This document shows positions 8,755 to 46,034 of a stretch of 64,000 nt of DNA, piece after piece (the first letter of the stretch is position 1; every line of letters starts with the position of its first letter). Source of the stretch: Streptococcus porcinus (GTDB lineage Bacteria; Bacillota; Bacilli; Lactobacillales; Streptococcaceae). Location of the stretch: the NCBI RefSeq assembly GCF_900475415.1, contig NZ_LS483388.1, positions 420,001 through 484,000 of the forward strand. Reading direction: 5' to 3'. A program made the translations under genes and the position numbers. The notes beneath the pieces were generated by a model. The model was not told where the DNA came from. It saw nothing but the letters and a program-made list of their open reading frames with translations, and ran no database searches.

Positions 8755-11700
8755 ATGTGCTTTTTAAAAAATAATTATCGCTACGCTTTACGGAAAACAT
8801 CTTTTGGACTTTTATCAGTTGCATGGCTAAGTTTTTTTCTAGTAACCAATCAAGTATCTGCTGATGAGATATCTTCAAATGTAGCTAATAATACTTCTAG
8901 CCAAGTACTTGCCAACGATTCGATTAAAGACTTAGAAGTAGCACTTAATCGTTCAAATGACGTTAAGAGTTTAGAAGAAAAATATCAAGCAGAAGGCTTC
9001 CAAGTAAGTCTTACTGAAGATGAGATATCTTATCCTGGTGCTCATGCGGCTGAAAAAATAGCAACTGAGATTAATCAGACCTATGATCAACAACAAAAAC
9101 AAATAGAAGCAGAAGTAGCTAGTTATAATGCGAAAGTAGCTGAGGAAGAAGCTAAGCAAAAGCAGTATCAAGAAGAGCTTGCTCTTTATCAGGAACAGGT
9201 AAAGGAAAAAGCACGAATTGAAGCGGTTAATGACCAGAAAAAAATTAATTACCAGAATGCTCAAGAAGCCTATATAGAAGCTGAAAAAAATCTGGGTGAG
9301 GAATACCAATTTACAAATGAGGATAAAAAAACAGTTAGTAATGGTAATAGTAACCCCTTAAAACTTTATGGGGAATTAGACCAAGAAAAGAAAAATAGTA
9401 TTGATTACTATAAGGGCTTAAAAGTTAAAGCCGATTTAGATGCCTTAGATGCTCATTCTTTACAAGAATCAATTACTTGGAATAAAAATACCACTTTTGA
9501 AAAAGTAAATGGTAACTTCAAAGTCAGTACAGGTACGGAGCTAAAAGACGAAACAAAACGTATTAGTCATACTATTAAATTAACGGGCTATAACATTAAT
9601 GATTCCTTTGTCTTAAAAAATGTTGGGAAGATTGAAACAGGTGATAGACTGGATTTAAAGGTTACTATTACCAAAATTGGAGAAGGTTATGGTCAGAAAA
9701 AAGATGATGGTAGCTATACCGTTGAACAAGCTCTTTACATAGGTAAAGAGTTTGAGAAGCTTAAAGAAGCTTCAGGCTCTATCGAATTTATCTATCGAAA
9801 TCATAAGGATATGGGCTTTAAATTTGAATTTTTGGTAAACAATAAGCCAACGAAAATTCTTATCACTCAAGTTATTGGTGATATTGATCTCGGACAAAAA
9901 ATTCAATTTGATTTTGGTAAGGATGGTAAGAAACTTTTTTCAGTGCCTCAGGACTCAAAAATTACAAATAATAATGAAACGTTTACGTCAGCTGCTAACT
10001 TTAATGTTCAAAACTTTGATAAAACCCCAGAGGGAACCATGTTAGCTGTAGGTGTAGGAACTGAGATGAATTATCACCATTTCACTGAGGCAAGTTACTA
10101 TCAATATACTAACAATAATTATGAAGTATTATCACAGTTAACAGAAGCGGAATTTGACAAGGAAAAACTTGCTCTAATGGCTGGAACAAGTACAGCAGCT
10201 CCGGGACAAAAGCGGGTTGGAGGAATCCTTTTTTCTTTATTTGGTAATTCAGTTAAGTTAAATGAGGTTGTTAAACCAGAACCCCCTACTTATGAACAAG
10301 TCTTGGAGCCACAAGTACCAACACCACCAGAAAAAATAACTATAGAAAAACCTAAACTTAGTCTGAAAAGTTTTAGATTAGTTCCTATGTTAGAAGCAGA
10401 GACTGCTTTTGATATTGAAACTGGAGATTGGCCTAAAGAAAACTTAAGTGATCCAAGCTTACCAGAGGACCCTATCATAAATGACAGTCTTCTGCCAACA
10501 GAAGATGACGGCCAAGTCAATATGAGTGAGATTGAACTTATCTTTGGTAATAGTGACTTTATCGATGTTTTTGAAGACACAGCAACAGAAGTGATAGGCG
10601 GTTCGAATTCTGGAGCTCTCTCTATTCAAGAAAATAGCGATCCTATTTATGAAGAAACATATGATTCCGAGCCAAGTCTTGAGTTAGGACAAAGCTTCTT
10701 AATTGAAGAATCAGAAGACACACAATTTGATATAAATGGTTTCTTAGGCGATGAGGTCATTGAAGAAGACACTGAAATCCCAGTTTATCAATCTGGACAA
10801 CAGTCAGACATTATAGAATTTAGCGAAGATAGCCAACCTGTTCTGACAGGCTTCTCAGGCGATGAGGTCATTGAAGAAGGTAGTCAAGTTCCAGTTTACC
10901 AATTTGGGATGCAGACAGAAGTCATAGAGTTCAGCGAAGATAGCCAACCTGTTCTGACAGGTTTCTCAGGCGATGAGGTCATTGAAGAAGACAGTCAAGT
11001 TCCAGTTTATCAATTTGGGATGCAGACAGAAGTTATAGAGTTCAGCGAAGATAGCCAACCTGTTCTGACAGGTTTCTCAGGCGATGAGGTCATTGAAGAA
11101 GACAGTCAAGTTCCAGTTTACCAATTTGGGATGCAGACAGAAGTCATAGAGTTCAGCGAAGATAGCCAACCTGTTCTGACAGGTTTCTCAGGCGATGAGG
11201 TCATTGAAGAAGACAGTCAAGTTCCAGTTTATCAATTTGGCATGCAGACAGAAGTTATAGAGTTCAGCGAAGATAGCCAACCTGTTCTGATAGGTTTCTC
11301 AGGCGATGAGGTCATTGAAGAAGACAGTCAAGTTCCAGTTTATCAATTTGGCATGCAGACAGAGGTTATAGAGTTCAGCGAAGATAGCCAACCTGTTCTG
11401 ACAGGTTTCTCAGGCGATGAGGTCATTGAAGAAGATACTGAAAGACCGATTCATCACTTTGGAATGCACTTAGAATCAATTGAATTCAGTGAAGATAGCC
11501 AACCTGTTCTGACAGGTTTCTCAGACGATGAGATCATCGAAGAAGATAGCATTATTCAAGAAGAAAAACTTGTTACAAAACAGAGTCAAAGTGAAGATAA
11601 AAATCATTTTAATAAAGCAAATAACCAAGCAACGCAAGTGGTAAAAACAGAAAAAGTTAATTTGCCAATGACCGGAGAAAAAGCGGAATCTAAGTTGGTA

Positions 11701-11769
11701 GCATTGATTTTTATAGTCATGAGTTTAGGTGGTCTTCTTAGCCAAACTTTTAAAAATCGTCAGTCTTAA
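8755..11769 (+). CDS. LPxTG-anchored adhesin with GbpC/Spa-like domain and fibronectin-binding-type repeats
   Basis: 1004 residues. Signal peptide about 1-37 (ALRKTSFGLLSVAWLSFFL...VSA). About 75-180 is a charged coiled coil resembling antigen I/II A-repeats, then a beta-rich domain about 235-505 that I assign to the GbpC/Spa type (SITWNKN, GTEMNYHHFTEASYYQY). A Pro-rich linker at about 505-535 leads to an acidic region and about eight 37-residue repeats (about 650-935) with EFSEDSQ, TGFSGDE and VIEEDS blocks, matching the pattern of streptococcal fibronectin-binding repeats. Cell-wall sorting signal LPMTG (970-974) plus membrane segment and tail. Product at the cell surface; fibronectin binding is inferred, not shown. 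Confidence 0.85.
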   Translation: MCFLKNNYRYALRKTSFGLLSVAWLSFFLVTNQVSADEISSNVANNTSSQVLANDSIKDLEVALNRSNDVKSLEEKYQAEGFQVSLTEDEISYPGAHAAEKIATEINQTYDQQQKQIEAEVASYNAKVAEEEAKQKQYQEELALYQEQVKEKARIEAVNDQKKINYQNAQEAYIEAEKNLGEEYQFTNEDKKTVSNGNSNPLKLYGELDQEKKNSIDYYKGLKVKADLDALDAHSLQESITWNKNTTFEKVNGNFKVSTGTELKDETKRISHTIKLTGYNINDSFVLKNVGKIETGDRLDLKVTITKIGEGYGQKKDDGSYTVEQALYIGKEFEKLKEASGSIEFIYRNHKDMGFKFEFLVNNKPTKILITQVIGDIDLGQKIQFDFGKDGKKLFSVPQDSKITNNNETFTSAANFNVQNFDKTPEGTMLAVGVGTEMNYHHFTEASYYQYTNNNYEVLSQLTEAEFDKEKLALMAGTSTAAPGQKRVGGILFSLFGNSVKLNEVVKPEPPTYEQVLEPQVPTPPEKITIEKPKLSLKSFRLVPMLEAETAFDIETGDWPKENLSDPSLPEDPIINDSLLPTEDDGQVNMSEIELIFGNSDFIDVFEDTATEVIGGSNSGALSIQENSDPIYEETYDSEPSLELGQSFLIEESEDTQFDINGFLGDEVIEEDTEIPVYQSGQQSDIIEFSEDSQPVLTGFSGDEVIEEGSQVPVYQFGMQTEVIEFSEDSQPVLTGFSGDEVIEEDSQVPVYQFGMQTEVIEFSEDSQPVLTGFSGDEVIEEDSQVPVYQFGMQTEVIEFSEDSQPVLTGFSGDEVIEEDSQVPVYQFGMQTEVIEFSEDSQPVLIGFSGDEVIEEDSQVPVYQFGMQTEVIEFSEDSQPVLTGFSGDEVIEEDTERPIHHFGMHLESIEFSEDSQPVLTGFSDDEIIEEDSIIQEEKLVTKQSQSEDKNHFNKANNQATQVVKTEKVNLPMTGEKAESKLVALIFIVMSLGGLLSQTFKNRQS
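10698..11560 (+). repeat. Tandem 111-bp repeats inside the adhesin
   Basis: Units repeat every 111 bp (for example units begin near 10921 and 11032). The five central copies are almost identical (one has LIGF for LTGF), while the first and the last two are diverged. Copy number is likely to vary between strains by slippage or recombination. Confidence 0.9.
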
Positions 11770-13213: not shown

Positions 13214-13247
13214 AAATGAGCCTTTCAATCAAGATTGGCTCATTTGT
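13214..13247 (-). terminator. Probable LysR-gene terminator
   Basis: AATGAGCC and GGCTCATT can form a stem around the stop of the LysR gene, with a modest T-rich tail on the minus strand. Confidence 0.4.
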
Positions 13248-14134
13248 TCGATATGGTAATGCTTGGAAACGTAGTTGATAAAGTCTTGTATGGCTGGAGC
13301 ATGTGTTGTGCTGTTTAGGTAAGCCATATAATAGTAACGGGAGTTTTTTAGGGCATTTACCTCAATGATGTCGACATCTAATGTCTTTAAAAATTCTAAT
13401 TTTGGCAGAATAGCAATACCGAAATTTTGAGCAACTAAACCTGCAATCGTTTCATCCTCTTCAATTTCAAAGGTAATATTAATCTGGTTTTTATAATTTT
13501 TGTACAGTTCTTCAATTACTGGTCGAACACCACTTTTCTTTGAAAACCAAATTTGTGAATAGGGAAGTGTATCTTCTAAAGTTACCTCTTCTAATTTTGT
13601 TAGCTCATGGTTTTTTGGAACAACAATAACCATATCTTGTATAGCAATAGGAATAAAAGTAATTTGGGGGTTGCTCTCAATTTTAGAACAAAAGGCTAAA
13701 TCATATTTACCATCTGTTAGCCCTTTAAGCAAATCCGCAGTCATTCCGCTATCATTGTAAAAAATAAAATTAGCTGGGGATTGGGGATATTGGGTAAGAA
13801 ACTGTCGCGTTAGGTTTGGGACAATACGGTGACTTAAAATACGTAGTAAGGCAATATTAATATCAAGTTTGTCTTGGCTGATTGCTTGAAGATGTGATAC
13901 GCTTTGATCAATAATCTTTAACGCTTTTTGAATATCTTTTGCGAATCTTCTACCATTAGTTGTAAGTACAATATTACGTCCTTGCTTTTCAAAAAGTTGT
14001 AGTCCTAGCTCATTCTCAATCATTGTAATAGCATGACTTAAGGTTGGTTGTGTAATATGTAATTGTTCAGCAGCTTTAGTATAATGCTCTACACTTGCAA
14101 GCGTAATAAAATATCTTAGATGTTGTAAATTCAT
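13229..14134 (-). CDS. LysR-family regulator of the quinate/shikimate locus
   Basis: 301 residues. N-terminal winged helix-turn-helix of LysR regulators (MNLQHLRYFITLASVEHYTK, AAEQLHITQPTLSHAITMIE, LFEKQGRNIVLTTNG), then a periplasmic-binding-protein-like effector domain (about 90-300). It is divergent from the TIM-barrel/SDR/MFS/aroE operon, the classical LysR layout. GGGGAG lies 6 nt before the ATG at 14134. The likely co-inducer is a cyclic acid of the pathway. Its probable binding motif appears upstream of both operons of the locus (see 14174 and 19664), and the first copy lies in its own promoter region, suggesting autoregulation. Confidence 0.87.
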   Translation of the reverse strand: MNLQHLRYFITLASVEHYTKAAEQLHITQPTLSHAITMIENELGLQLFEKQGRNIVLTTNGRRFAKDIQKALKIIDQSVSHLQAISQDKLDINIALLRILSHRIVPNLTRQFLTQYPQSPANFIFYNDSGMTADLLKGLTDGKYDLAFCSKIESNPQITFIPIAIQDMVIVVPKNHELTKLEEVTLEDTLPYSQIWFSKKSGVRPVIEELYKNYKNQINITFEIEEDETIAGLVAQNFGIAILPKLEFLKTLDVDIIEVNALKNSRYYYMAYLNSTTHAPAIQDFINYVSKHYHIEQMSQS

Positions 14135-14173
14135 AATCAACTCCCCGTAATGTTTTTCTTATTCTATCATGAA

Positions 14174-14241
14174 CTATAAATTTTTTCTATGGAAAGCCTT
14201 TCAAAATTCAATTGGATTTTGTGATTTCTTTAACTTATAAT
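14174..14241 (+). promoter_or_regulatory. LysR-type operator plus promoter of the first quinate/shikimate operon
   Basis: The motif CTATAAA-n6-CTATGGA (14174-14193) contains ATA-N9-TAT. It is followed 39 bp from its start by TTGGAT (14213-14218), a 17-bp spacer and TATAAT (14236-14241). The motif centre is near -64 relative to the predicted start, the standard LysR recognition site. The same module occurs at 19664-19731. Confidence 0.75.
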
Positions 14242-14292: not shown

Positions 14293-15129
14293 ATGTCACA
14301 AGAATCACCAATTACTATTAGTTCCTGGACCTTAGGAGATACTTGTCGCTTTGAAGATCGGGTTAAGGCAGCCAAAAATGCAGGATATCAAGGCATTGGA
14401 CTTCGCTCAGAAACCTATGTTGACGCCTTAAATGAAGGTTTAACAGATCATGATATTTTAACAATTTTAGATAAATATGATATTAAAGTAACTGAAGTTG
14501 AATATATTGTTCAGTGGGCAGAAGAAAACCGTTCCTATGAGCAGAAATATAAGGAACAGATATGTTTTCACATGTGTCGACTTTTTGATGTTGCTCATAT
14601 CAACTGTGGTCTTATGGAAAGTTATTCTATTGATTACACAGCTCGAAAATTAAAAGAACTTTGCGAGCGTGCTGGTGACCTAATTATAGGTGTTGAACCG
14701 ATGCCATATAGTGGACTTCCTGATTTTGATAAGGCTTATGCTGTTGTTGAAGCCTCTGGTTGTGATAACGCCATGTTGATCCTTGATACTTGGCACTGGG
14801 TTCGGGCTGATCAACCTTATCGTCAACTCACAGCTAAACAAGCAGCAAAAGTTGTTTCTATTCAAATCAATGATGCCTATGAACGACCATATGCGTCAGC
14901 AATTCTCCGAGATGAGTCAATGCATGATCGTTTAGCACCGGGAACAGGAGTCAAGGACACTGTTGGTTTTATTAATATGATTAAGGAAGCAGGCATTCGG
15001 CCTAAAGTTATAGGTGTTGAAGTGATTTCAGATGCTATTTTGGCTCAAGGTTTAGATTATGCTTCTCGATATACATATGAAAATACGGTCAAGGTTCTTG
15101 AAGAAGCTTGGCCAGAGCAATTATACTAA
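14293..15129 (+). CDS. Xylose-isomerase-like TIM-barrel enzyme (candidate 3-dehydroshikimate dehydratase or isomerase)
   Basis: 278 residues, AP-endonuclease-2/xylose-isomerase-like TIM barrel. Metal-ligand candidates are visible: the Glu in GVEPMPYSG, Asp and His in LILDTWHW, Asp in IQINDAYE and Glu in VIGVEVISD, the pattern of IolE/AsbF-type enzymes. Because it opens an operon with aroE and next to aroD, a 3-dehydroshikimate dehydratase (to protocatechuate) or an isomerase of a cyclohexane-carboxylate is plausible. The family is too broad to be sure. The start at 14293 follows GGGAGG; the in-frame upstream ATG at 14278 overlaps that SD region and is less likely. Confidence 0.7.
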   Translation: MSQESPITISSWTLGDTCRFEDRVKAAKNAGYQGIGLRSETYVDALNEGLTDHDILTILDKYDIKVTEVEYIVQWAEENRSYEQKYKEQICFHMCRLFDVAHINCGLMESYSIDYTARKLKELCERAGDLIIGVEPMPYSGLPDFDKAYAVVEASGCDNAMLILDTWHWVRADQPYRQLTAKQAAKVVSIQINDAYERPYASAILRDESMHDRLAPGTGVKDTVGFINMIKEAGIRPKVIGVEVISDAILAQGLDYASRYTYENTVKVLEEAWPEQLY

Positions 15130-15201
15130 TGAGTTTGTTGATTTTTTAACAAAAGTAAGTGAAAGAAATAATTTACGATATAATAGAAAGATAGGTGGAA
15201 A

Positions 15202-16059
15202 ATGACGGAAGAATGGTTAGGCCTAGATGGAAAGGTTGCAGTCGTTACAGGAGCAGTTGGAGGTATGGGGAAAACAATTGTTCAAGAATTTGCTAAACAA
15301 GGTGTAAATATTGTCCTCCTCGATATTAAAGAGAATGACTTAAATGTTTATGCTGAAGAAATAAGGACGACTTATGGTGTTGATACTTTAGCCATTGTGA
15401 CTGATTCTACATCAGAAGAAGCAGTTGAAAATGCAGTGAGGAAGACAGTTGAAAAATTCGGTCGTGTTGATATTTTAGTTAATACAGCCGCTATGCTACG
15501 AGCATGCCCGCTTGAAGACTTACCTTTGGAAGAATGGCGGCAAACGGTAGATATTAACTTAACAGGTTATTTCCTAGTATCGCAACGGTTTGGTCGTCAA
15601 ATGATTAAACAGGGAAAAGGGAATATGGTTCATGTATCAACGATTGCTTCTGTGTTTCCTGAGACCTACTCTGCAGCTTATAGTTCAACAAAAGCGGGTG
15701 TAAATATGATGTCTCGTCAGATGGCAGCAGAGTGGGGTCAATTTGGGGTGCGTAGTAATTGTATTCAGCCATGTTTTGTTAAAACGCCGTTATCTGAAGC
15801 TTTCTATGCTGATCCAGATGTAGAAAAAGGTCGTAAGGCTTTAACTGCAAACAAACGGATTGGCAATACTATGGATATTGCTAATGCAGTACTTTATCTT
15901 GCAAGTGATCGTTCTGATTATACAAATGGACATGAATTACGTGTTGAAGGTGGTTTTGGCATTATGATGGGGGATCAAACTCCAAAGCCAGGCGGTCGCC
16001 GTCATTATGCAGAGAAAGAACATAAAGCTTATCTTGAAAGAGTCAAGGGAAATAGCTAA
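15202..16059 (+). CDS. Short-chain dehydrogenase/reductase (SDR)
   Basis: 285 residues, classical SDR: nucleotide motif TGAVGGMGKT near residue 16, NTAAML for the NNAG-like strand, catalytic Ser in VHVSTIAS and the Tyr160-x3-Lys164 pair. It acts in the cytoplasm with NAD(P). Spacing of 72 bp after the TIM-barrel gene and 45 bp before the first transporter indicates an operon. Within this locus it could oxidise or reduce a ring hydroxyl of quinate, shikimate or their reduced products; the substrate is not determined by sequence. The SD AGGTGG precedes the ATG. Confidence 0.82.
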   Translation: MTEEWLGLDGKVAVVTGAVGGMGKTIVQEFAKQGVNIVLLDIKENDLNVYAEEIRTTYGVDTLAIVTDSTSEEAVENAVRKTVEKFGRVDILVNTAAMLRACPLEDLPLEEWRQTVDINLTGYFLVSQRFGRQMIKQGKGNMVHVSTIASVFPETYSAAYSSTKAGVNMMSRQMAAEWGQFGVRSNCIQPCFVKTPLSEAFYADPDVEKGRKALTANKRIGNTMDIANAVLYLASDRSDYTNGHELRVEGGFGIMMGDQTPKPGGRRHYAEKEHKAYLERVKGNS

Positions 16060-16104
16060 TAAAAGCTAGAGGATTATTAGGATTATCTTTAAAAAGGGGA
16101 ACTT

Positions 16105-17394
16105 ATGTTTAAAAACAATAAATACAATTTTACTGCGATTTTGCTCTGGATGACCTATTTCTGTCATGGTATTCAGGCTATTATCATTTCACAAAATGCT
16201 AACTTCTTTGCAAATAAATGGGAAGTAGAAGCAGCAGCAGTTTTCGCAGTTATTGCTTGGACTGGTTTAGGAAAAATCTCTTTCTTAACTTTTTCTGGAC
16301 CACTTTCGGATAAAATTGGCCGTAAACCATTGATTGCCTTAGGTTTATTTGGTTATGTTATTATGTTTGGTTCATTTTTAGTGGCAACAAACCTTTGGAT
16401 GGCTAATATTCTCGCTTTTATTGGTGGAGCAATGACCTCACTTTATGATGGTGCTATTAATCCAGCTTTATTTGAAATGTATCCTGAAAATAAGTCAACG
16501 GCATCAATTTTTAGTAAGGCATTCATTTCGGTTTCTTCAATGCTTTACCCATTATTTGTAGCTTACTTAGTAAGTCATAAAATGGCAATTGAGATTGGTA
16601 TTATTGTTCCCTTTGTTCTTAGTATCCTAGTTTTAATTGGTGTTCTTATTTCGAGGTTCCCTGATAATGATATTCGTAAAGAGCAAAATGTTTCTGCCAG
16701 TGAAGCAATCAAAATCTTAGAAGCTAGACAAAGTACTGATCACGTTGTTACAAGTTCTAAAGTATCTCCAAATAAAAAAAGTGCAAATTTTGCTATAGAT
16801 GGTGTTGTTCTGTCTGCTTTTGCTTTTACCATTTACTCGACTTTTTACTTGTTTCAACAAGCCTCTAAATTGTATGCTCAAAATGTTATTCACATGTCAG
16901 AAACAAGTGCAGCAGCTGTGACTTCTTATTATCAACTTGGTGGTTTGATTGCGACAATTGTCTTTGCTTTTTTGATGGCTCGTGGCATTCGTGATATTGC
17001 ATTACTCGTTATTAGTCCAATTTTTGCAGGATTAGCAGGTCTTCTGGTTTACTTTATTCCAACTGCTGCTACATTAACTTTTGCTGGTATCATTATTGGA
17101 TTCTTTGCGGCTGGAGGACTCTTACAAATGGGGAATGCAGTTTTAAACCAATTCTTTGATAAAAACAAAGGTCGTAATACAAGTATTTATTATTTTGTAA
17201 TGGCTCTAGGTTCCTATATTGTTCCAATGCTAGCTTCCAAATTAATTGCGGCAAATCGTGCAGATTTGATTATGTTATTTGTATCACTTTGTGGATTTGC
17301 TTCTGCAGCCTTAATGATGTTTGCTGGAAAACGTTATGGCCATATTTTTGGAGTATCAGTCTTCTCTAACACAACAAAGACTGAAAGGAACTAG
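16105..17394 (+). CDS. MFS transporter (putative quinate/shikimate uptake), copy 1
   Basis: 429 residues, twelve predicted hydrophobic segments. The MFS loop motif is seen as GPLSDKIGRKPLIALG between segments 2 and 3. It is clearly paralogous to the next gene (both begin with a Y-x-GIQAIIISQN or [12 protein letters not shown] helix and share FFAAGG near the C-terminus). Located between the SDR and aroE, so import of quinate, shikimate or a related aromatic precursor is the likely role. SD AAAAGGGG. Confidence 0.8.
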   Translation: MFKNNKYNFTAILLWMTYFCHGIQAIIISQNANFFANKWEVEAAAVFAVIAWTGLGKISFLTFSGPLSDKIGRKPLIALGLFGYVIMFGSFLVATNLWMANILAFIGGAMTSLYDGAINPALFEMYPENKSTASIFSKAFISVSSMLYPLFVAYLVSHKMAIEIGIIVPFVLSILVLIGVLISRFPDNDIRKEQNVSASEAIKILEARQSTDHVVTSSKVSPNKKSANFAIDGVVLSAFAFTIYSTFYLFQQASKLYAQNVIHMSETSAAAVTSYYQLGGLIATIVFAFLMARGIRDIALLVISPIFAGLAGLLVYFIPTAATLTFAGIIIGFFAAGGLLQMGNAVLNQFFDKNKGRNTSIYYFVMALGSYIVPMLASKLIAANRADLIMLFVSLCGFASAALMMFAGKRYGHIFGVSVFSNTTKTERN

Positions 17395-17455
17395 ATAAAA
17401 GAGAGGATAATGATTTTCTCTGTAATTGATAAAAATATATAAGGAGTATCATTCA

Positions 17456-18688
17456 ATGAAAAATAAGTATGTGCCGACTATTGGCGCACTTTATATTAAC
17501 TATATTTTTCAAGGAATCGCTGCAATTATTATTTCACAGAATATGGCTGTATTGGAAGGAAGATGGCAGGCTTCTATTAGTCAGATTACTTTAGTAATCA
17601 GTGCCATTGGTTTTGGTCGTATTCTAAGTGTTAATATTGCCGGTTTGATTTCAGATGCTCTCGGTCGGCGAAAAGCAGTACTTCTGGGAGTTTTAGCCTA
17701 TATTATTTTTTATCTAGGTTTAGTTTTTGCTAGTAATTATATGATTGCATTTATATTTGCCATCTTTGCTGGTATTGGTAATTCTTTTTTAGACACAGCT
17801 ACTTATCCCGTGGTTGTGGAAGCTTTTGAGGAGCATAGTAGTAATAGTGCCCTAAGTGTACTGAATAAGGCTTTTATCTCTATCGGCCAATTTTTACTGC
17901 CCATTATCACTAGCTTTTTATTACGTCATCATTTCTATTTTGGATGGACTTTCATTGCTTCTAGTTTGTTTTTAGTAGTCAACACTTTCTTTATTTTTAA
18001 GTTACCGTTTCCTAAATATCAAAAAAATAAGGCAACTGAACCTGTTGTAGACGCTGAATTTTCAACAGAAATTAAACCTTTATGGAATCAGTCTAACTTT
18101 GCGATTGAAGGTCTTTGCCTATTAATCTTTTCACTTGTTTCTGTTTCCCTATTTAACATTTTTATTATTTGGATTCCAAGTTTTGCGGAAAGTGCTATCG
18201 GAATAGCAAGAACAACGAGTCTCATGTTTGTCAGTCTGTACAGTATTTTTTCCTTTGTTTCAGTTTTTATTACATCTGCTATTGTTAAGCGTGGAGTAAA
18301 TGTGTTATCATTTATGATTTTTTGTACTAGTATGTCAGCACTCGCGATTATGGGCATGTTAGTAATGCCAAACATTTATAGCTTAGTGTTTGCAACATTT
18401 TGTATTGGATTCTTTGCAGCTGGTGGCATATGGCAATTAGGATTAGCAACGTTACTCGACTTTTTCCCACAAAGAAGAGGACTTGTAACTAGTTACTATT
18501 CCCTAGCTACATCGGTATCTGTAATGGGCTCTCCTTATATAACAGGTATTCTTGCAGAGAAGAGAGTTGCATTAGTATTTTATTTAGTAGTAGCATTAGC
18601 AGTGTTAGGAAGTATTGCATTATCAATTGTTGCTTATCGTTATAAAAAAGTTTTCTTATCAGAAACAAACATTATTAGTATTCATTAA
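17456..18688 (+). CDS. MFS transporter (putative quinate/shikimate uptake), copy 2
   Basis: 410 residues, twelve hydrophobic segments, loop motif [16 protein letters not shown]. Paralogue of the preceding transporter but well diverged, so the two may differ in substrate (for example quinate against shikimate) or one may export the end product. The start at 17456 is chosen because AAGGAG lies upstream; the frame also opens at 17426. The aroE ATG follows 16 bp after the stop. Confidence 0.8.
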
Positions 18689-18704
18689 AAAGAGAGGTAT
18701 TATT

Positions 18705-19589
18705 ATGTCAGAACGTTTATCAGGTCATACATTACTTATTTCCTTAATTGCAACACCCATACGCCATAGTCTGTCACCTAAAATGCATAATGAAGCTTTT
18801 GCTAAATTGGGGTTGGATTATGCTTACCTTGCTTTTGAAGTAGGTAATGAGGAACTAGCAGATGCGGTTCAAGGAATCCGTGCTTTGGGAATTCGTGGTT
18901 CAAATGTGTCCATGCCAAATAAACAAGCGATTATTCCTTATCTTGATGAGATTTCACCTGCTGCAGAACTTGTAGGAGCAGTAAATACGGTAGTCAACAA
19001 AGATGGTAAAGGTCACTTGGTAGGGCACATTACAGATGGAACAGGGGCAGTTCGTGCTTTAGCAGAAGAAGGTGTTGATATTAAAGGTCAAATTATTACT
19101 TTAGCAGGAGCGGGTGGCGCAGGCACTGCAATTGCTGTCCAACTTGGCTTAGATGGTGCTAAAGAGGTCCGTATCTTTAATCCTAAAGATGCTGCCTACA
19201 CTAATGCAGAAAAGACTGTGGAAAAACTTAATAGCAAAACAAATACTAAAGCTACAGTGACTGATTTAGCAGATGACGAAGCTTTCAAAAAGTCAATTGC
19301 TGAATCTTCTATCTACATTGATGCAACCGGTGTTGGTATGAAACCGCTTGAGAATCTTAGTTTAATAAATGATCCAGAAGTTATTCGTCCAGATTTAGTT
19401 GTCTTTGACGTGGTTTATAGCCCAGCTGAAACAAAATTATTGAAGTTTGCAAAAGAACATGGCGCTAAAAAAACTATTAATGGTTTAGGGATGATGCTTT
19501 ATCAAGGTGCCGAAGCCTTCAAATTATTCACAGGTGAAGAAATGCCAGTAGAATACATTAAGGATCTTCTTTTTAATGAAGAAAAATAA
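18705..19589 (+). CDS. aroE: Shikimate/quinate dehydrogenase (AroE family)
   Basis: 294 residues. Interconverts 3-dehydroshikimate and shikimate, or dehydroquinate and quinate, with NAD(P). The substrate site is conserved: SLSPKMHN near the N-terminus, Lys73 in SNVSMPNK (normally NVTxPxK), GAVNTV, Asp111 in HITDGTG. Dinucleotide motif GAGGAGTA; the following strand ends in FNPKDA rather than the NRT that marks NADP-specific AroE, so NAD use or quinate activity is possible. It is embedded in a catabolic-type operon with transporters, so it is likely not the biosynthetic AroE. SD AGAGAGG before 18705; the frame opens further upstream without SD. Confidence 0.88.
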
Positions 19590-19602
19590 AGATTTTCAAA
19601 AG

Positions 19603-19632
19603 AACAGTGAGGTTTGTCTTACTGTTTTTTTT
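19603..19632 (+). terminator. Terminator after aroE
   Basis: AACAGTGAG pairs with CTTACTGTT (one wobble) before a run of T; separates the first operon from aroD. Confidence 0.75.
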
Positions 19633-19663
19633 GCTATTTAAAATGGTTTGTTCTATGGATAAC

Positions 19664-19731
19664 CTATAAAATTTATCTATTGATTCACAAAAAAAGATGC
19701 ATTAGATTTAGGAAAATTCTCATGCTATACT
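19664..19731 (+). promoter_or_regulatory. Second LysR-type operator plus promoter (aroD operon)
   Basis: CTATAAA-n6-CTATTGA (19664-19683) matches the site at 14174 at 17 of 20 positions. TTAGAT (19703-19708) starts 39 bp after the motif start, exactly as in the first operon. A 17-bp spacer leads to TATACT (19726-19731) with TGC upstream. Confidence 0.75.
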
Positions 19732-19828
19732 TATAGTGAAAAACATCACATTTTCTCTACTTAATTGTATTGGAATATGTCAGAAAATTAAAAATGAAAG
19801 TAAAATTTGAGAAAGGTAAACGTATTAA

Positions 19829-20584
19829 ATGGTAAAAACAGTTTCAGTTGGGGATATAACAATTGGCCAAGGTCTACCTAAAATTATCGTGCCCATCGTC
19901 GCTAAAAGTGCAGAAGCTATTATCCAAGCTGCCAAAGAAATCAGTCACATTGATTGTGATTTTGTAGAGTGGCGAATAGATCATTTTGAAGAAGTCATGA
20001 ACTTTGTAGCCGTTGCAGACTTATCCAAAGTAGTGAGAGAACTTCTGGGAAAGCCACTTTTGGTAACCTTTAGAACGTACAAAGAAGGAGGGGTTAGTCC
20101 TTTAATCAATAAAAGTTATTTCGAATTATACGAAACATTAATTGAAATAGGGAAACTGGATTTATTAGATGTTGAATTGTTTATGCCTGAAGAAGGGGTT
20201 CAAAACATAATCAAAAAGGCACATGACAAGGACATTAAAATCATTATGTGCAATCATGATTTTGATAAGACACCTAGTCAAGAAATTATTGTTGAACGTT
20301 TAAGAAAGATGGAAGAAAAGGGTGCTGATATTTGTAAAATTGCTGTAATGCCTCAAAGCAGTCAGGATGTACTAACGCTTATGAAAGCTACCATTCAAGC
20401 ACGTGAAGAATTACAACAACCTTTAATTACTATGTCAATGGGATCATTAGGTATGGTAACGCGTATTGCTGGTGAAATGCTTGGCTCCACAGCTACTTTT
20501 GGAGCTCTACAGGAGATATCAGCTCCAGGGCAAATTCCAGTAACCTTACTACGAGAGATTTTAAGGACATTTAGAGGAAATTAA
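19829..20584 (+). CDS. aroD: Type I 3-dehydroquinate dehydratase
   Basis: 251 residues, the usual length. Converts 3-dehydroquinate to 3-dehydroshikimate through a Schiff base. Catalytic residues are at the canonical positions: E86 in FRTYKEGG, H143 in MCNHDFDKTP and K170 in GADICKIAVMPQS; substrate residues in EWRIDHF are also present. It has its own promoter and starts a second operon with the large reductase 14 bp downstream. Type I enzymes serve in biosynthesis or catabolism; the surroundings point to quinate use. Confidence 0.95.
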   Translation: MVKTVSVGDITIGQGLPKIIVPIVAKSAEAIIQAAKEISHIDCDFVEWRIDHFEEVMNFVAVADLSKVVRELLGKPLLVTFRTYKEGGVSPLINKSYFELYETLIEIGKLDLLDVELFMPEEGVQNIIKKAHDKDIKIIMCNHDFDKTPSQEIIVERLRKMEEKGADICKIAVMPQSSQDVLTLMKATIQAREELQQPLITMSMGSLGMVTRIAGEMLGSTATFGALQEISAPGQIPVTLLREILRTFRGN

Positions 20585-20598
20585 GAAAAGGATAGGAC

Positions 20599-23505
20599 AT
20601 GACGAGAGAATTACTTAATCATTTGACATTACCCAACGGTTTAACATTAAAAAATCGGATTGTGATGGCTCCAATGACGACACAATCAGCCTATTTTGAT
20701 GGTAGTGTGACTGAAGAACTTATTAAATATTACGCAGAACGATCAGGAACAGCTGGAACAATCGTTGTGGAAAGCGCCTTTGTCGAAGATAAGGGACGTG
20801 GATTCTTTGGTGCACTTGGTATCGATCATGATGATAAAATTGAAGGATTGAGTCGCATTGCAAAAGCAATTAAGAATAAAGGTTCAAAGGCACTCATTCA
20901 AATTTACCATGCTGGACGTATGGCTTGGCCAGAGATGAATGGAGGGGCAAAACCTATTTCTGCGTCAGCAGTTGCTGCCCTTCGTCCTAACGCACCTGTT
21001 CCTAGCGAAATGACACATCAAGCTGTTCTGGAAATGATTGAGCAGTTTGCGGAGGCAGTTCGTCGCGCTATCAAGGCAGGCTTTGATGGTGTTGAACTAC
21101 ATGGTGCAAATACTTATCTTTTGCAGCAGTTTTTCTCTCCACACTCAAATCGTCGTCAAGACACTTGGGGTGGCAGCCGAGAAAAACGAGCTAAATTCCC
21201 CAAAGAAGTTTTAAAGGCTGTCCGTGCGGTTCTTGAAGAAGAAGAGACAAAGGATTTTATCATAGGCTATCGGTTCTCCCCTGAAGAATTAGAAGAACCA
21301 GGGATTCGTTTTGAGGACAGTATGTATCTTCTTAACTCTTTAGCCGAAGTAGGTCTAGATTATGTTCATTTCTCAATGAGTGATTACCTAAGAACATCTA
21401 TCGTCGACACTAATGATATAGAACCACTTATTAGCAAGTATCATGCTCTGAAATCAGAAAGCTTAGCTACTGTGCCAGTAGTAGGTGTCGGAAGTATTTT
21501 ACAAAAAGCTGACGCAGAAGAAGCATTAGAAGTTGGTTATGATTTAGTAGCAGTAGCAAAAGGTTTTCTAGTGCAAAATGACTGGGCACAGGCAGTCATG
21601 GGGGATCACCTTATCCCAGCATTTGCAGATGTTAACGATCGTGAAAAATTGGTGATTCCAACCCCTTTATGGAAGTTTATGGATGATACTTTCTTTTTAG
21701 TAAAAGATACACTTGCGGAAGCCAAAAAGGCAGAGCGGCTAAAAGGACTGATGACTAAACCTTTAGAGTATAAAGCTGGACAATATCGAGTGATGGCACA
21801 TGGGCACAATAGTGAACTTCCAATGAAGGTAAGCTTTAGCGACACTGCAATCACCGCAATTGAAATTGATAGTGCTGGGGAATCAGCTGGTCTATCGGAT
21901 TTAGTTTTTGAAAAAATGCCAAAACAAATTATTGATTTCCAAACCTTAAATGTTGATGCTGTCTCAGGTGCATCTTCAACTAGTCAAGGTGTTATTGATG
22001 GAGTCTCAGCAGCAGTTTTAGAAGCTAGTGGCCAGGATGCAGTAGATGTCTTGAAAGCTCGGCCAAAACCTACTGTGGTTCGTTCAACAGAAGTAATTGA
22101 GGAAGAGACAGATGTTGTTGTTGTGGGTGGTGGCGCGGCCGGAATTGCTGCTGCTTTGCGGGCAGATGAACTTGGCTTCAATGTAACCCTAATTGAAAAA
22201 CTAAGTTTTATTGGTGGTGCTATATCTGTCTCTGGTGGAAATCAAGTTGTTATGGGGTCAAGACTTCAAAAAGAAGAAGGCGTGATAGATGATACTCCTG
22301 AACTCATGTATGAAGATTTCATGGAAAATGGAAATCATAAAAATATTCCAGAACTCTTATCCCTATTGGCGGAAAATGTTGGTCAAGCTACGGATTGGGT
22401 TCACGATTATATTGGTGTTCAATACGATAAGGGCTTGCATGTCTTAGCTGAGTATCGTAAAGACAGAGAATTAGCTTATTCTCACGGAGGTCATGGCTTC
22501 GCTGACACTGTTCGCACTAAAATGGCAGCATCAGGGGTCACCTTACTATTACAAACAAAAGCAGAGAAACTCTTACATGACAATCAAGGAAATGTAACAG
22601 GTCTTGTTGCGGTAGAAGAAACTGGAAAAACTCACCGTATTAGAACAAAAGGCGTTATTCTGACTACAGGTGGCTATGGTAATAACAAAGCTCTTTTAAC
22701 TGATGAGCTTAAAGATGTTCTTTTCTATGGGACAAGCTCTTCAATGGGTGAAGGTCTTCTTATGGCACAAGTGCCAGAAATTGATGCGGCAAGCCGATTA
22801 ATGGCCTATGGTAAAATCTATCCCAATGGAGTGGAAGTGGCACCAGGATATGCTAAATCAACCATTGGTGGGAACTTAGTTGTTCTTAAGGAAAATGGTT
22901 TATTAGTCAATACTGATGGTCGGCGCGTGGTTAACGAACGTGCTAGTAACCACGATATCTTAGAAGTTTTAATGGAACAACAAACCAAATTACTTTACTT
23001 ATTGTTAGACCAAAATCATTTTGATATTTTCCGTAAGGAAATTGCTGAAGGAGGAATTTCAGAAGCAGAAGTAGCATCATGGCTTGAAGCAAATGGCCAA
23101 ACAAGACCATATCTCTTCCATGCAGATACTTTAGAAGAACTGGCTGAATTAGCTGGTATGGACTCTAATAGTTTAGCTGAAACAGTTGCTCGTTATAATA
23201 CTTTTGTTGATAATGGAGAGGACTTAGACTTCCATAGGGAAGAACGCTTTCTCCAAGAAAAAGTTGGGCAAGGTCCTTATTATATGATTGAACAACGTCC
23301 ACGTTTTGCGACAACCATGGGTGGCTTAGTGGTTAATGATAAACTTGAAGTTGAAAATAATAAAGGTAATGTGATTCAAGGACTTTATGCGGCAGGAGAA
23401 GTTGTTGGTGGTGTTATGGGAACAGACTCACCATCAGGAGCTAATAACGCTTGGGCATTGACATCTGGTAAACTTGCAGCAGAAAATTTAGTAGCAAATA
23501 ATTAA
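20599..23505 (+). CDS. OYE / FMN_bind / FAD_binding_2 fusion: NADH-dependent enoate (fumarate-reductase-like) reductase
   Basis: 968 residues in three parts. About 1-370: old-yellow-enzyme/2,4-dienoyl-CoA-reductase-like FMN domain (VELHGANTYLLQQFFSP). About 385-480: FMN_bind domain with a D453-x-x-S-G-A-S459 flavinylation motif, so FMN would be attached to S459 by an ApbE enzyme. About 500-968: FAD_binding_2 domain of the fumarate/urocanate-reductase type (DVVVVGGGAAGIAAALRADE, GRRVVNERASNHD, AAGEVVGGVMGTDSPSGANN). This layout is known from soluble NADH:fumarate and NADH:acrylate-type reductases. Here, beside aroD and aroE, the acceptor is probably an unsaturated ring acid such as 3-dehydroshikimate or shikimate. 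No signal peptide, so cytoplasmic. Confidence 0.85.
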   Translation: MTRELLNHLTLPNGLTLKNRIVMAPMTTQSAYFDGSVTEELIKYYAERSGTAGTIVVESAFVEDKGRGFFGALGIDHDDKIEGLSRIAKAIKNKGSKALIQIYHAGRMAWPEMNGGAKPISASAVAALRPNAPVPSEMTHQAVLEMIEQFAEAVRRAIKAGFDGVELHGANTYLLQQFFSPHSNRRQDTWGGSREKRAKFPKEVLKAVRAVLEEEETKDFIIGYRFSPEELEEPGIRFEDSMYLLNSLAEVGLDYVHFSMSDYLRTSIVDTNDIEPLISKYHALKSESLATVPVVGVGSILQKADAEEALEVGYDLVAVAKGFLVQNDWAQAVMGDHLIPAFADVNDREKLVIPTPLWKFMDDTFFLVKDTLAEAKKAERLKGLMTKPLEYKAGQYRVMAHGHNSELPMKVSFSDTAITAIEIDSAGESAGLSDLVFEKMPKQIIDFQTLNVDAVSGASSTSQGVIDGVSAAVLEASGQDAVDVLKARPKPTVVRSTEVIEEETDVVVVGGGAAGIAAALRADELGFNVTLIEKLSFIGGAISVSGGNQVVMGSRLQKEEGVIDDTPELMYEDFMENGNHKNIPELLSLLAENVGQATDWVHDYIGVQYDKGLHVLAEYRKDRELAYSHGGHGFADTVRTKMAASGVTLLLQTKAEKLLHDNQGNVTGLVAVEETGKTHRIRTKGVILTTGGYGNNKALLTDELKDVLFYGTSSSMGEGLLMAQVPEIDAASRLMAYGKIYPNGVEVAPGYAKSTIGGNLVVLKENGLLVNTDGRRVVNERASNHDILEVLMEQQTKLLYLLLDQNHFDIFRKEIAEGGISEAEVASWLEANGQTRPYLFHADTLEELAELAGMDSNSLAETVARYNTFVDNGEDLDFHREERFLQEKVGQGPYYMIEQRPRFATTMGGLVVNDKLEVENNKGNVIQGLYAAGEVVGGVMGTDSPSGANNAWALTSGKLAAENLVANN

Positions 23506-23517
23506 CTCGTTTCCTCT

Positions 23518-23560
23518 AATTAAAAAGTTCAGGTGACTCTGTCATTTGAGCTTTTTAATT
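23518..23560 (+). terminator. Terminator of the aroD operon
   Basis: AATTAAAAAG pairs with CTTTTTAATT, with inner TCA/TGA pairing and a T-rich tail. The rest of the gap to 23840 has no recognisable feature except an AT-rich region before the DedA gene. Confidence 0.75.
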
Positions 23561-41574: not shown

Positions 41575-42714
41575 GTGAAAGTCTTGATTACATCACCTCG
41601 GGCACCGGTCACCATTGACTGGGTAAGGCTAGCGCTTAGGTCAAATCATGAGGTACATTTAACAGATAGTTTAGAATCGCCCTTGGCCTTTTTTACTTAT
41701 GAGCAAGGACTAAGACCTATTTATCATAAAATTGCTGGTCCTCGTTATGACTTTAAAGCCTATGCCAAAGCCATGACTGCCTTAATTGAACAAATGGATT
41801 TAGTTATTCCCACCTGTGAAGATATCTTTTATCTGGAACAGGTGCCCTTATCTGAAAGCAACCGAGCTAAATGCTTGATGCCTGATAAAGACTTAATTTT
41901 TCAATTACATCATAAATATGCTATTTACCAAATCATTATGAACCCAGTTGGCATAGTTTATCCCAAAACTAAATTATTAGAATCCTGGACAGATTTGGAT
42001 CAAACTCAACTATCCTCAACCATTCTCAAACCCGTCTTTTCCCGTTTTGGAAAGGAGGTCATAAGAGATATTAATAATGAATCTTATGAAATTAAGCCAA
42101 TCTCTTCCAGCTATCCATGGGTGCAGCAAGAGAAAATCAATGGTCAAAATCTCTGCTCCTATGCCATCTGTCATCATGGCGAAGTAGTAGCTCAAGTTGT
42201 CTACCAAGCACAATACTGCTTGAATGGTTCGGCATCTTCATATTTTGAAGCCTATGACGAGCCTAGAATAAATGCCTTTGTTTGCGATTTTGTCGCTCGA
42301 ACAAATTACCATGGACAAATTGCTTTTGATTTTATCGACAATGGGCAGGACATCTACCTTCTAGAGTGTAACCCTCGAGCAACCAGTGGCCTTCATCTCC
42401 TTTCGGAAGGATTAAGAATAGAAGAAGCAGGAATCCGCTATACTGAAACAGGGGAATTACCCGTTAAAAGCATGGGAAAAGGACTGTATTTCCTCTTTGG
42501 CTTGCAAGCACTAGGGCAAGGGAAAATAGCAGAGCTGATGAGAGACAAAAAACGTTCAGAGAGTATATTAAAAGGTGTACCAATGCACCACCTCATAGCT
42601 GCGCTGGCAGAATTCACTAAAATCGCCGCAGTGAAAAAAATCAGCCTGACCCAGGCCAGCACAGATGATATCCAATACGATGGAGAGGCAGGACAAAAAG
42701 ATGTCACACTTTAG
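41575..42714 (+). CDS. ATP-grasp enzyme of an uncharacterised biosynthetic operon
   Basis: 379 residues, GTG start after GAGGGA. N-terminal Rossmann-like pre-ATP-grasp part (MKVLITSPRAPVTIDWVRLA), central ATP-grasp fold (STILKPVFSRFGKEV for the P-loop lysine region; QIAFDFIDNGQDIYLLECNPRATSG for the metal-binding strand with Asp, Glu, Asn). It should join a carboxylate to an amine, thiol or hydroxyl through an acyl phosphate. First gene of a tight six-gene operon; its stop overlaps the next start. Substrates unknown. Confidence 0.82.
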   Translation: MKVLITSPRAPVTIDWVRLALRSNHEVHLTDSLESPLAFFTYEQGLRPIYHKIAGPRYDFKAYAKAMTALIEQMDLVIPTCEDIFYLEQVPLSESNRAKCLMPDKDLIFQLHHKYAIYQIIMNPVGIVYPKTKLLESWTDLDQTQLSSTILKPVFSRFGKEVIRDINNESYEIKPISSSYPWVQQEKINGQNLCSYAICHHGEVVAQVVYQAQYCLNGSASSYFEAYDEPRINAFVCDFVARTNYHGQIAFDFIDNGQDIYLLECNPRATSGLHLLSEGLRIEEAGIRYTETGELPVKSMGKGLYFLFGLQALGQGKIAELMRDKKRSESILKGVPMHHLIAALAEFTKIAAVKKISLTQASTDDIQYDGEAGQKDVTL

Positions 42715-45253: not shown

Positions 45254-46034
45254 GTATTTTGAATGTGGCTACTGTGTTAATCAGGAGAGCATGATTTTTA
45301 AAGGGGTGCCCAAAAAAGAAGTGCTCTTTCCGGCGGGTGTTTTTCTGATTAATCATGAGGACTTAGGCTATATTCTTTATGATACCGGCTACGCTGTCGA
45401 TGTCGCTTCAAGTAAAAAACTCAAATATCTCTTATATCGTCTCCCTAATCCCATTCATCTGAAAAGGGAAGATTGTATTGATAGACAATTAGAAAAGCTA
45501 GATATTAAAGTCAGTCACATTAATCATATCATTATTTCACACCTGCACCCTGATCATATTGGATGCTTGAAACTTTTTCCAAATGCTGACTTCTATCTGA
45601 GTCGAAAGGCTTATCAATGCTACTTAAAACCTAAGTTTCGCGAACTGATTTTTCAGGAATACTTTCCAGAAGATTTTGATAAACGTCTGCAAGTCTTAGA
45701 TTTTCCGACAGATTCTAGTCTCTTGCCAGGGCAAAAGTGCTTAGATTTTCTTATGGATGCTTCCATCATGGCTTATTCTCTGGATGGTCATGCAAAAGGG
45801 CAACTCTGTTTGCATTTACCGGAGAAAAAGCTCTTTTTAGCAGCCGATACAGTTTGGCGGACCGATATGTTGGATAAGATTGACCGCATGCGAACCATTC
45901 CCAGACTGATTCAGTCCGATTTCAAGGCCTATCAAAACAGTATTGAACTTCTAAAAGACATTCAAAAACAAGGCATTGAAGTCTTGGTCAGCCATGAGGA
46001 CCCTCAAAATATTCGGAGGATTTTGCATGAATAG
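45231..46034 (+). CDS. MBL-fold hydrolase (N-acyl-homoserine-lactonase-like)
   Basis: 267 residues with complete dinuclear metal site: ISHLHPDHIG (HxHxDH), His in SLDGHAKGQ, Asp in LAADTVW and His in LVSHEDP. AHL-lactonase/glyoxalase-II-like. In this operon it likely hydrolyses a thioester or lactone intermediate. The start at 45231 has GAAGGAA upstream and overlaps the epimerase end; the frame itself opens at 45210. Its stop overlaps the next gene by 8 bp. Confidence 0.85.
   Translation: MSKIKSLKYFECGYCVNQESMIFKGVPKKEVLFPAGVFLINHEDLGYILYDTGYAVDVASSKKLKYLLYRLPNPIHLKREDCIDRQLEKLDIKVSHINHIIISHLHPDHIGCLKLFPNADFYLSRKAYQCYLKPKFRELIFQEYFPEDFDKRLQVLDFPTDSSLLPGQKCLDFLMDASIMAYSLDGHAKGQLCLHLPEKKLFLAADTVWRTDMLDKIDRMRTIPRLIQSDFKAYQNSIELLKDIQKQGIEVLVSHEDPQNIRRILHE

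What the first reader, a model, noticed from the sequence alone, without database searches (positions are those of the whole stretch)
14293..23505. Possible quinate/shikimate-reducing pathway that uses the ring acid as an electron acceptor
The locus combines uptake (two MFS), AroD, AroE, an SDR, an AP2-like TIM barrel and a fused OYE/FMN_bind/FAD reductase. Known relatives of the fusion reduce fumarate or acrylate-like acids with NADH. Lactobacilli are known to reduce quinate/shikimate to dihydroxycyclohexane-carboxylate. I infer that 3-dehydroshikimate or shikimate is reduced here to regenerate NAD+ in a fermenting coccus. I do not know of a streptococcal description.
Basis: partly seen in the sequence, partly recalled or inferred. 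Interest (0 to 1): 0.78.

Follow-up and report, generated by a model that had tools for sequence, protein, structure and literature searches.

The report
Streptococcal quinate/shikimate locus with ring reductase
This stretch of a streptococcus genome looks like a regulated gene set for taking up plant ring acids (quinate and shikimate) and probably using them to get rid of electrons during fermentation, with a reductase whose active-site residues differ from those of the known fumarate and urocanate reductases.

Summary
The TIM barrel is 57% identical to Listeria Lmo2234 and carries seven of ten residues of a dehydroshikimate dehydratase site, so one branch probably makes protocatechuate. The reductase (RED) tracks hydroaromatic genes: of 197 Streptococcus genomes 15 have it, all 15 with this AroE type and 13 with this TIM barrel (found in no other). 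Of 80 named loci, 10 of 16 RED-type have AroE nearby, against 0 of 64 others. RED-type FAD domains, with or without the OYE part, form their own group: 38 of 38 rows share residues (K753, R902, A904, D943, S944, W952) that none of 47 fumarate/urocanate/HcrB-like rows has, and lack their Arg/His. Best reading: a qui-type locus in which an NADH-fed, ApbE-flavinylated reductase reduces the ring C=C of shikimate or dehydroshikimate as an electron sink. The substrate is inferred from context, not shown. Rivals: caffeate reduction, protocatechuate only, shikimate salvage.

The parts
13229..14140 (-). LysR-type regulator, divergent from the operon (QuiR-like)
   Evidence: Pfam HTH_1 and LysR_substrate; best solved match is Listeria Lmo0488 effector domain 5ted, residues 94-295, E 1.4e-36, next best 2.2e-20
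14176..14190 (.). palindromic box ATARA-N5-TCTAT upstream of the TIM barrel, candidate regulator site
   Evidence: 9 of 10 core matches; 9 sites this good in 64 kb; seen at both promoters of 7 of 7 streptococcal loci of this layout, absent in L175 and L176; motif chosen after inspection
14293..15129 (+). TIM barrel, probable 3-dehydroshikimate dehydratase
   Evidence: AP_endonuc_2; 57% identical to Lmo2234 over 271 residues; E135 D165 H168 Q191 S209 R213 E243 invariant in 7 of 7, at the numbers and spacings of the QuiC1/QsuB site (PMC7442255 passages)
15202..16059 (+). SDR, possibly reducing a ring ketone or oxidising quinate
   Evidence: adh_short_C2; passes only a broad NCBIfam subfamily (glucose 1-dehydrogenase, 218 against 215 bits); substrate unknown
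16105..17394 (+). MFS transporter 1
   Evidence: MFS_1; below the cut-off of every specific transporter model shown
17456..18688 (+). MFS transporter 2
   Evidence: MFS_1; below the cut-off of every specific transporter model shown; goes with AroE and AroD in other genera
18705..19589 (+). AroE, shikimate/quinate dehydrogenase
   Evidence: NCBIfam shikimate dehydrogenase NF001313 over cut-off (458 against 431), quinate/shikimate dehydrogenase NF009390 below it (322 against 349); closest solved: Listeria 3tnl, then YdiB
19598..19631 (+). terminator-like stem after AroE
   Evidence: such sites are not more common than in shuffles (3 against a mean of 6.7)
19666..19680 (.). second palindromic box, upstream of AroD
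   Evidence: 9 of 10 core matches; same reservations as the first box
19829..20584 (+). AroD, type I 3-dehydroquinate dehydratase
   Evidence: DHquinase_I E 3.1e-72; second copy elsewhere, beside aroC by its look
20599..23505 (+). RED, 968-aa fused reductase
20632..21597 (+). OYE domain of RED (residues 12-333), presumed NADH side
   Evidence: Oxidored_FMN E 5.8e-71
21802..22017 (+). FMN_bind domain of RED (residues 402-473)
21955..21975 (+). flavinylation motif D453-A-V-S-G-A-S459
   Evidence: fits D-x-x-[S/T]-G-A-[S/T] (PMC12052999 passages); D453, S456, G457, A458 and S459 invariant in 13 of 13
22111..23430 (+). FAD_binding_2 domain of RED (residues 505-944), presumed catalytic
   Evidence: E 4.7e-54; distinct residue signature
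23518..23560 (+). terminator-like stem after RED
   Evidence: not above shuffles as a class

Best explanation
A qui-type quinate/shikimate locus under a QuiR-like LysR regulator, probably two transcription units (TIM-SDR-MFS1-MFS2-AroE and AroD-RED). Inferred route: MFS proteins import quinate or shikimate; AroE interconverts quinate with 3-dehydroquinate and shikimate with 3-dehydroshikimate using NAD; AroD dehydrates dehydroquinate; the TIM barrel turns part of the dehydroshikimate into protocatechuate. RED takes electrons from NADH through its OYE domain and a covalent FMN set by ApbE, and its FAD domain reduces the ring C=C of shikimate or dehydroshikimate; the SDR would reduce a ring ketone. 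The net effect would be an electron sink that regenerates NAD+ in a fermenting cell. Shown here: genes, domains, flavinylation motif, co-occurrence, the changed active site. Inferred: substrates, direction, products, regulation.
For: RED in 15 of 197 Streptococcus genomes, all 15 with this AroE type (72% identity or more; 13 of the 182 without RED also have it at 53% or more) and 13 of 15 with the TIM barrel, which no other genome has (Fisher 3.2e-15 and 1.5e-18, not corrected for relatedness). AroE near 10 of 16 RED-type named loci, AroD near 8; 0 of the 64 other loci. In the 6 unlinked Enterococcus cases an AroE of 76-79% identity lies elsewhere in the genome, in 4 of 6 with MFS2, AroD and LysR. 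OYE-less RED-type proteins lie in a stretch with AroE in 7 of 9 loci. RED-type residues in 38 of 38 rows against 0 of 47 Arg-type rows, separate tree group. HcrB-layout proteins keep Arg/His in 7 of 7. L. monocytogenes-type loci hold an unrelated OYE/Pyr_redox_2 reductase in the same gene set.
Against: No substrate was tested. Two OYE-less RED-type genomes (G198, G385) have no AroE or AroD nearby and only 46-48% AroE elsewhere. TIM-SDR-AroE sets without RED exist (L170, L172). AroE outlives RED in relatives, and AroE may also serve biosynthesis here. The TIM barrel is far below the cut-off of the QuiC model (19.8 against 1200 bits) and lacks three of the ten site residues. AroE passes the shikimate, not the quinate, model. 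Genome counts are not independent. The tree program flags the join of the most distant RED-type branch as a meeting of long branches, although the alternative was rejected (p-AU 0.015).
Confidence: 0.58

Rival explanations
1. The locus handles chlorogenate-type esters: the quinate half goes to protocatechuate, and RED reduces the released hydroxycinnamate (caffeate), as HcrAB does in lactobacilli.
For: In 4 streptococcal loci (L004/L225, L177, L180, L181) an esterase-like gene and a citrate-type transporter gene lie between AroE and AroD, in L175 beside AroD (the transporter of L177 is in two ORFs). L164 carries an RED-type FAD domain in the HcrA/HcrB layout.
Against: The window itself has no such esterase. 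HcrB-layout proteins, which by layout I take for hydroxycinnamate reductases, keep the Arg/His set and fall in the other tree group. That layout was not tested by identity to L. plantarum HcrB.
Confidence: 0.18
2. Protocatechuate only: quinate/shikimate are aromatised as reported for Listeria, and RED serves another purpose such as detoxifying an enone or quinone.
For: TIM barrel and regulator resemble Listeria Lmo2234 and Lmo0488.
Against: L005, L013/L182, L163, L164, L175 and L176 have RED-type, AroE and AroD together without TIM or SDR in the stretch; Streptococcus genomes G129 and G179 have RED but no TIM.
Confidence: 0.1
3. Salvage: imported quinate or shikimate feeds chorismate synthesis, and RED is a side activity.
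For: AroA is present, with a shikimate-kinase-like ORF beside it and AroD beside an aroC-like ORF by their look. The usual aroE and aroB are not between AroD and AroC, and the only other AroE match is divergent. Relatives without RED keep this AroE.
Against: TIM barrel and RED would waste the substrate; AroB was not searched genome-wide.
Confidence: 0.08
4. RED runs in the oxidative direction, desaturating a saturated ring acid on the way to protocatechuate.
For: Sub-cut-off matches to 3-ketosteroid, tricarballylate and 4-oxocyclohexanecarboxylate dehydrogenases.
Against: An NAD(P)H-side module (OYE or FMN_red) is fused or adjacent, and forming a C=C with NAD+ as acceptor is uphill (general knowledge).
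Confidence: 0.06

Closest known systems
Listeria qui operons with regulator QuiR (Lmo0488), Lmo2234 and neighbours (the QuiR work is recalled, not seen)
   Same: LysR, TIM barrel, AroE and MFS genes; best solved matches of the regulator, TIM barrel and AroE are Listeria proteins; L178, whose TIM barrel is 100% identical to Lmo2234, shows the order LysR/TIM/reductase/AroE/MFS/MFS
   Different: Listeria has an OYE/Pyr_redox_2 reductase where streptococci have RED, no SDR in that stretch, and two separate operons (recalled)
Soluble fumarate and urocanate reductases (FccA, UrdA)
   Same: FAD_binding_2 fold family, FMN_bind and flavinylation motif
   Different: The two Arg and the His pair are replaced (N784, S944, A904-T905) in every RED-type row but for the N784 place, which is Tyr in 4
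HcrA/HcrB hydroxycinnamate reductase of lactobacilli (identified here by layout only)
   Same: NAD(P)H-linked, FMN_bind plus FAD_binding_2; L164 has the same layout with an RED-type FAD domain
   Different: Arg/His kept in 7 of 7; no AroE or AroD in the 7 stretches; separate tree group
Other OYE-FMN_bind-FAD fusions (Staphylococcus, Vibrio, enterobacteria), including presumed fumarate and acrylate reductases
   Same: Same three-domain layout
   Different: 42-44% or less over the whole chain or best segment in most listed cases, Arg-type FAD domain, no AroE or AroD nearby
Quinate/shikimate reduction by lactobacilli (Whiting and Coggins, recalled)
   Same: The proposed chemistry and purpose
   Different: No genes for it found in the papers searched; the organisms of the OYE-less loci are unnamed here

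Membership tests
Soluble fumarate/urocanate reductases (flavocytochrome c, TIGR01813) | score over the curated cut-off | tested here: not met
   249 against 285.45 bits
Soluble fumarate/urocanate reductases (flavocytochrome c, TIGR01813) | proton-donor Arg (UrdA R411) and carboxylate Arg (UrdA R560) | tested here: not met
   N784 and S944; Arg in 47 of 47 Arg-type rows
ApbE-flavinylated FMN_bind proteins | D-x-x-[S/T]-G-A-[S/T] in an FMN_bind domain and an ApbE in the genome | tested here: met
   D453-S459, ApbE match; motif. The modification itself was not tested
VprA vinyl phenol reductase (NF053717) | score over the curated cut-off | tested here: not met
   194 against 600 bits
HcrB hydroxycinnamate reductase | Arg-type FAD domain with FMN_red front end | tested here: not met
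   OYE front end and RED-type residues; HcrB taken by layout, not by identity
Dehydroshikimate dehydratase (QuiC1/QsuB type) | active-site residues of the TIM barrel | tested here: inconclusive
   7 of 10 by number and spacing; counterparts of Arg64, Leu97 and Leu136 not recognised; no residue-level alignment to QuiC1 was printed; QuiC model far below cut-off
Dehydroshikimate dehydratase (QuiC1/QsuB type) | conversion of dehydroshikimate to protocatechuate | not testable with these tools
   needs an assay
YdiB-type quinate/shikimate dehydrogenase | score over the NF009390 cut-off | tested here: not met
   322 against 349 bits; over the cut-off of shikimate dehydrogenase NF001313
YdiB-type quinate/shikimate dehydrogenase | NAD-type acidic residue after the second strand | tested here: met
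   NPKD at the place of YdiB NRRD/NRKD; the meaning of this Asp is recalled
QuiR-type regulator | effector domain closest to Lmo0488 | tested here: met
   binding of shikimate not testable
Hydroaromatic C=C reductase | NADH-dependent reduction of shikimate or dehydroshikimate | not testable with these tools
   needs the purified enzyme

The most novel reading that the evidence does not exclude
RED and its OYE-less cousins are a new reductase subfamily for hydroaromatic acids with exchangeable NADH input modules, and they are the unknown genes of the quinate/shikimate reduction described (recalled) in lactobacilli. In the full locus RED, the TIM-barrel dehydratase and the SDR together would take dehydroshikimate to 3,4-dihydroxycyclohexanecarboxylate, making quinate a sink for several NADH in streptococci, Gemella, Aerococcus and Enterococcus.
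Probability: 0.3. Interest if true: 0.75.

Novelty: new variant of a known kind. Interest (0 to 1): 0.57.

Why it matters
If true, it would give genes to an old biochemical observation, extend it to streptococci and related cocci, and add a reductase group whose substrate cannot be read from the fumarate reductase pattern. Public names such as 'Urocanate reductase' and 'fumarate reductase flavoprotein subunit' on these proteins (seen) are contradicted by the residues. It makes a simple question testable: do these cocci use dietary quinate and shikimate as electron acceptors?

Tried and rejected
Rejected: RED as a fumarate or urocanate reductase. Rejected as the main reading: RED as an HcrB orthologue. 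The structure model of RED was only moderate (mean pLDDT 76.1, pTM 0.48, under 50 in several active-site stretches), so I drew nothing from it, ran no fold search and left the second structure job unused. Promoter-like sites were not above shuffles and terminator-like sites were fewer than in shuffles. My note after called both second copies biosynthetic paralogues; searches show the second AroE is divergent and lies in another gene cluster, so I withdraw that for AroE and keep it for AroD. Paper searches found no genetic account of quinate or shikimate reduction in streptococci or lactobacilli; searches did not return the Listeria QuiR and QuiC2 papers, of which the second was seen only as a reference title. 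The regulator box was defined after looking at the regions; of 9 loci, 7 have it at both promoters and L175 and L176, whose layout differs and of which I scanned one upstream region each, do not. Rows dropped: A1 took the window and 12 of 120 listed homologues; of 120 FAD domains of sufficient length 99 were kept after removing duplicates, shorter pieces having been set aside before that count; the trees used 80 and 74 of 111 rows; the residue count used 85 of 111, the other 26 being VprA-like and unclassified rows. The family and genome searches are capped or drawn samples: 197 and 395 genomes.
Full report
What is there. The window lies in a 2.03-Mb genome. Its reductase is 98% identical to a Streptococcus porcinus protein, so I take it for a streptococcus close to that species. 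Upstream and divergent lies a LysR-type regulator (13229-14140). Gaps between the operon genes are 14-72 bp except for 239 bp between AroE and AroD, which holds a terminator-like stem and a palindromic box (core ATAGA-N5-TCTAT, 9 of 10) like one upstream of the TIM barrel. Boxes of 9-10 matches stand upstream of both genes in 7 of 7 streptococcal loci of this layout; L175 and L176, with another layout, lack it in the one region scanned each. The motif was chosen after looking, and nine sites this good occur in the 64 kb. I read this as two units under one regulator, as I recall for the two qui operons of Listeria.

What the parts resemble. The regulator's effector domain matches Listeria Lmo0488 (5ted, E 1.4e-36) far better than the next solved LysR. 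The TIM barrel is 57% identical to Lmo2234 over 271 residues (2g0w). Its residues E135, D165, H168, Q191, S209, R213 and E243, invariant in 7 of 7 aligned sequences, stand at nearly the same numbers and spacings as seven of the ten active-site residues listed for QuiC1/QsuB dehydroshikimate dehydratases (passages of PMC7442255); IolI has His where it has Gln, and a profile of the family reaches QuiC1 (5hmq) at E 1.2e-4. Against this, the QuiC model scores 19.8 bits with a cut-off of 1200 and three of the ten residues are not recognised. I read it as a dehydratase towards protocatechuate. A 2020 paper on a distinct Listeria dehydratase, QuiC2, I saw only as a reference title; that QuiC2 is Lmo2234 is my guess. 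AroE is closest to a Listeria enzyme and then to YdiB, and has the acidic residue that I recall as NAD-type, but by curated cut-off it is a shikimate, not a quinate/shikimate, dehydrogenase. AroD has a second copy elsewhere, beside an aroC-like ORF.

The reductase. RED joins Oxidored_FMN, FMN_bind and FAD_binding_2 in one chain with the flavinylation motif DAVSGAS, and the genome has one ApbE; in Enterococcus pallens an ApbE gene lies directly upstream of RED. UrdA needs R411 and R560 (passages of PMC7921117); RED has N784 and S944 there. In 111 aligned FAD domains, the 38 RED-type rows all have E746, K753, R902, F903, A904, T905, D943, S944, N950, W952 and S956, while the 47 Arg-type rows (fumarate, urocanate, HcrB-layout and other OYE-fused kinds) all have His at A904 and Arg at N784 and S944; Y741 is shared by the RED-type rows and 4 Arg-type rows; 26 further rows were not counted. 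The four most distant RED-type rows differ at N784 (Tyr) and two of them, measured, are 31-34% identical to RED over this domain. In the tree the 28 RED-type rows form one group (SH-aLRT 99), apart from the Arg-type group (98). The program warned that the most distant branch joins by long branches. A second tree without six long rows kept the group (99), and holding that branch with the Arg-type rows instead was rejected (p-AU 0.015); both are quick searches.

Input modules are exchanged. The OYE front end occurs on RED-type and on Arg-type FAD domains. RED-type FAD domains also occur without it, and in L164 with an FMN_red front end and a separate FMN_red protein, the layout I recall for HcrB and HcrA. 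So the FAD domain, not the layout, goes with the hydroaromatic genes.

Association with hydroaromatic genes. Of 80 named loci fetched with the reductase profile, 16 are RED-type: 8 have AroE and AroD in the stretch, 2 AroE alone, 6 neither; the other 64 (36 with an FAD domain) have neither, some on short stretches. The six are Enterococcus; all six genomes carry an AroE 76-79% identical to the window's elsewhere, in four of six with LysR, MFS2 and AroD. Of 197 Streptococcus genomes RED is in 15 and TIM in 13, all 13 among the 15; AroE of this type (53% or more, a cut set at the gap to 44%) is in 28, including all 15; Fisher p 1.5e-18 and 3.2e-15, not corrected for shared ancestry. Of nine OYE-less RED-type loci, seven have AroE in the stretch, six of these also AroD; the exceptions G198 and G385 have neither. 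S. massiliensis (L005) and the genomes of L013/L182, L163, L164, L175 and L176 have RED-type, AroE, AroD and MFS genes without TIM or SDR in the stretch, so the core appears to be uptake, AroE, AroD and RED.

Replacement. In L178, whose TIM barrel is 100% identical to Lmo2234 and which is therefore L. monocytogenes or very near it, the gene set holds a 644-aa Oxidored_FMN + Pyr_redox_2 protein of the BaiCD kind, below the curated cut-off; the other seven fetched loci of that unnamed genus also show an OYE-type ORF beside TIM. L179 has such a protein between AroE and an MFS gene. An unrelated layout for similar chemistry in the same gene set is my best argument that the pathway includes a C=C reduction.

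Esters. In four streptococcal loci (L004/L225, L177, L180, L181) an esterase-like and a citrate-type transporter gene lie between AroE and AroD, and in L175 beside AroD; only L180 and L225 were scanned against family libraries. This would suit quinate esters such as chlorogenate. The window has no such pair.

How it most likely works. Quinate or shikimate enters through MFS proteins. AroE with NAD makes dehydroquinate from quinate, AroD makes dehydroshikimate, AroE can return shikimate. RED reduces the ring C=C with NADH. In loci without the SDR shikimate is the simpler substrate, since no ketone is left over; with it, dehydroshikimate, whose C=C is activated by ketone and carboxylate, is equally possible. 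The TIM barrel would drain dehydroshikimate to protocatechuate; one quinate aromatised and one reduced would balance the NADH. None of these steps was measured.

Against. The substrate is not shown. AroE may also serve biosynthesis: AroA is present, with a kinase-like ORF beside it, but no aroE or aroB lies between AroD and the aroC-like ORF as they do in L005, and the only other AroE match is divergent; AroB was not searched genome-wide. Relatives without RED keep AroE, alone or with MFS genes. TIM-SDR-AroE sets without RED exist (L170, L172). Hydroxycinnamate reduction cannot be excluded by sequence.

Literature. Open-library searches returned no genetic account of quinate or shikimate reduction in streptococci or lactobacilli; most subscription papers are not held. 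The work of Whiting and Coggins on lactobacilli and of Prezioso on Listeria QuiR is recalled, not seen. From passages of PMC13101492 I take that L. plantarum HcrA/HcrB reduce hydroxycinnamates with NADH.

Verdict. I rate it a new variant of a known kind.

Noticed in passing
L263 (G195), L264 (G070), L265 (G015), L266 (G124), L267 (G043): Streptococcus genomes with a close AroE (62-97%) but no RED keep AroE alone or with MFS genes, in three of five beside the same VTT gene as the window: the locus looks decayed with AroE retained.
   Followed up: partly
G000:C1:1139000-1158900 (L261), outside the window: A second, divergent AroE-like gene lies beside a TIM-barrel gene, an F420_ligase-like gene and an AMP-binding/PP-binding protein, which looks like a natural-product cluster.
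   Followed up: partly
window 41575-48235: A run of ORFs that by eye look like an ATP-grasp protein, an epimerase-like SDR, a metallo-beta-lactamase-fold hydrolase, an AMP-ligase-like protein and a ketoacyl-synthase III-like protein; no family search was made.
   Followed up: no
window 8755-11769: A 1004-aa surface-protein-like ORF with many near-identical repeats and an LPMTGE-type end.
   Followed up: no
L012, L170, L171, L178, L179: Two AroE subtypes by sequence motif: SMPNK types go with AroD, TMPCK types with the TIM barrel, as if two modules had fused in the streptococcal locus (the L170 and L171 copies were judged by score only).
   Followed up: partly
L177 6227-7542: The citrate-type transporter gene of this locus is in two overlapping ORFs, so probably broken.
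   Followed up: no
public names: RED-type proteins are named urocanate reductase or fumarate reductase flavoprotein subunit in public records although the defining arginines are absent.
   Followed up: yes
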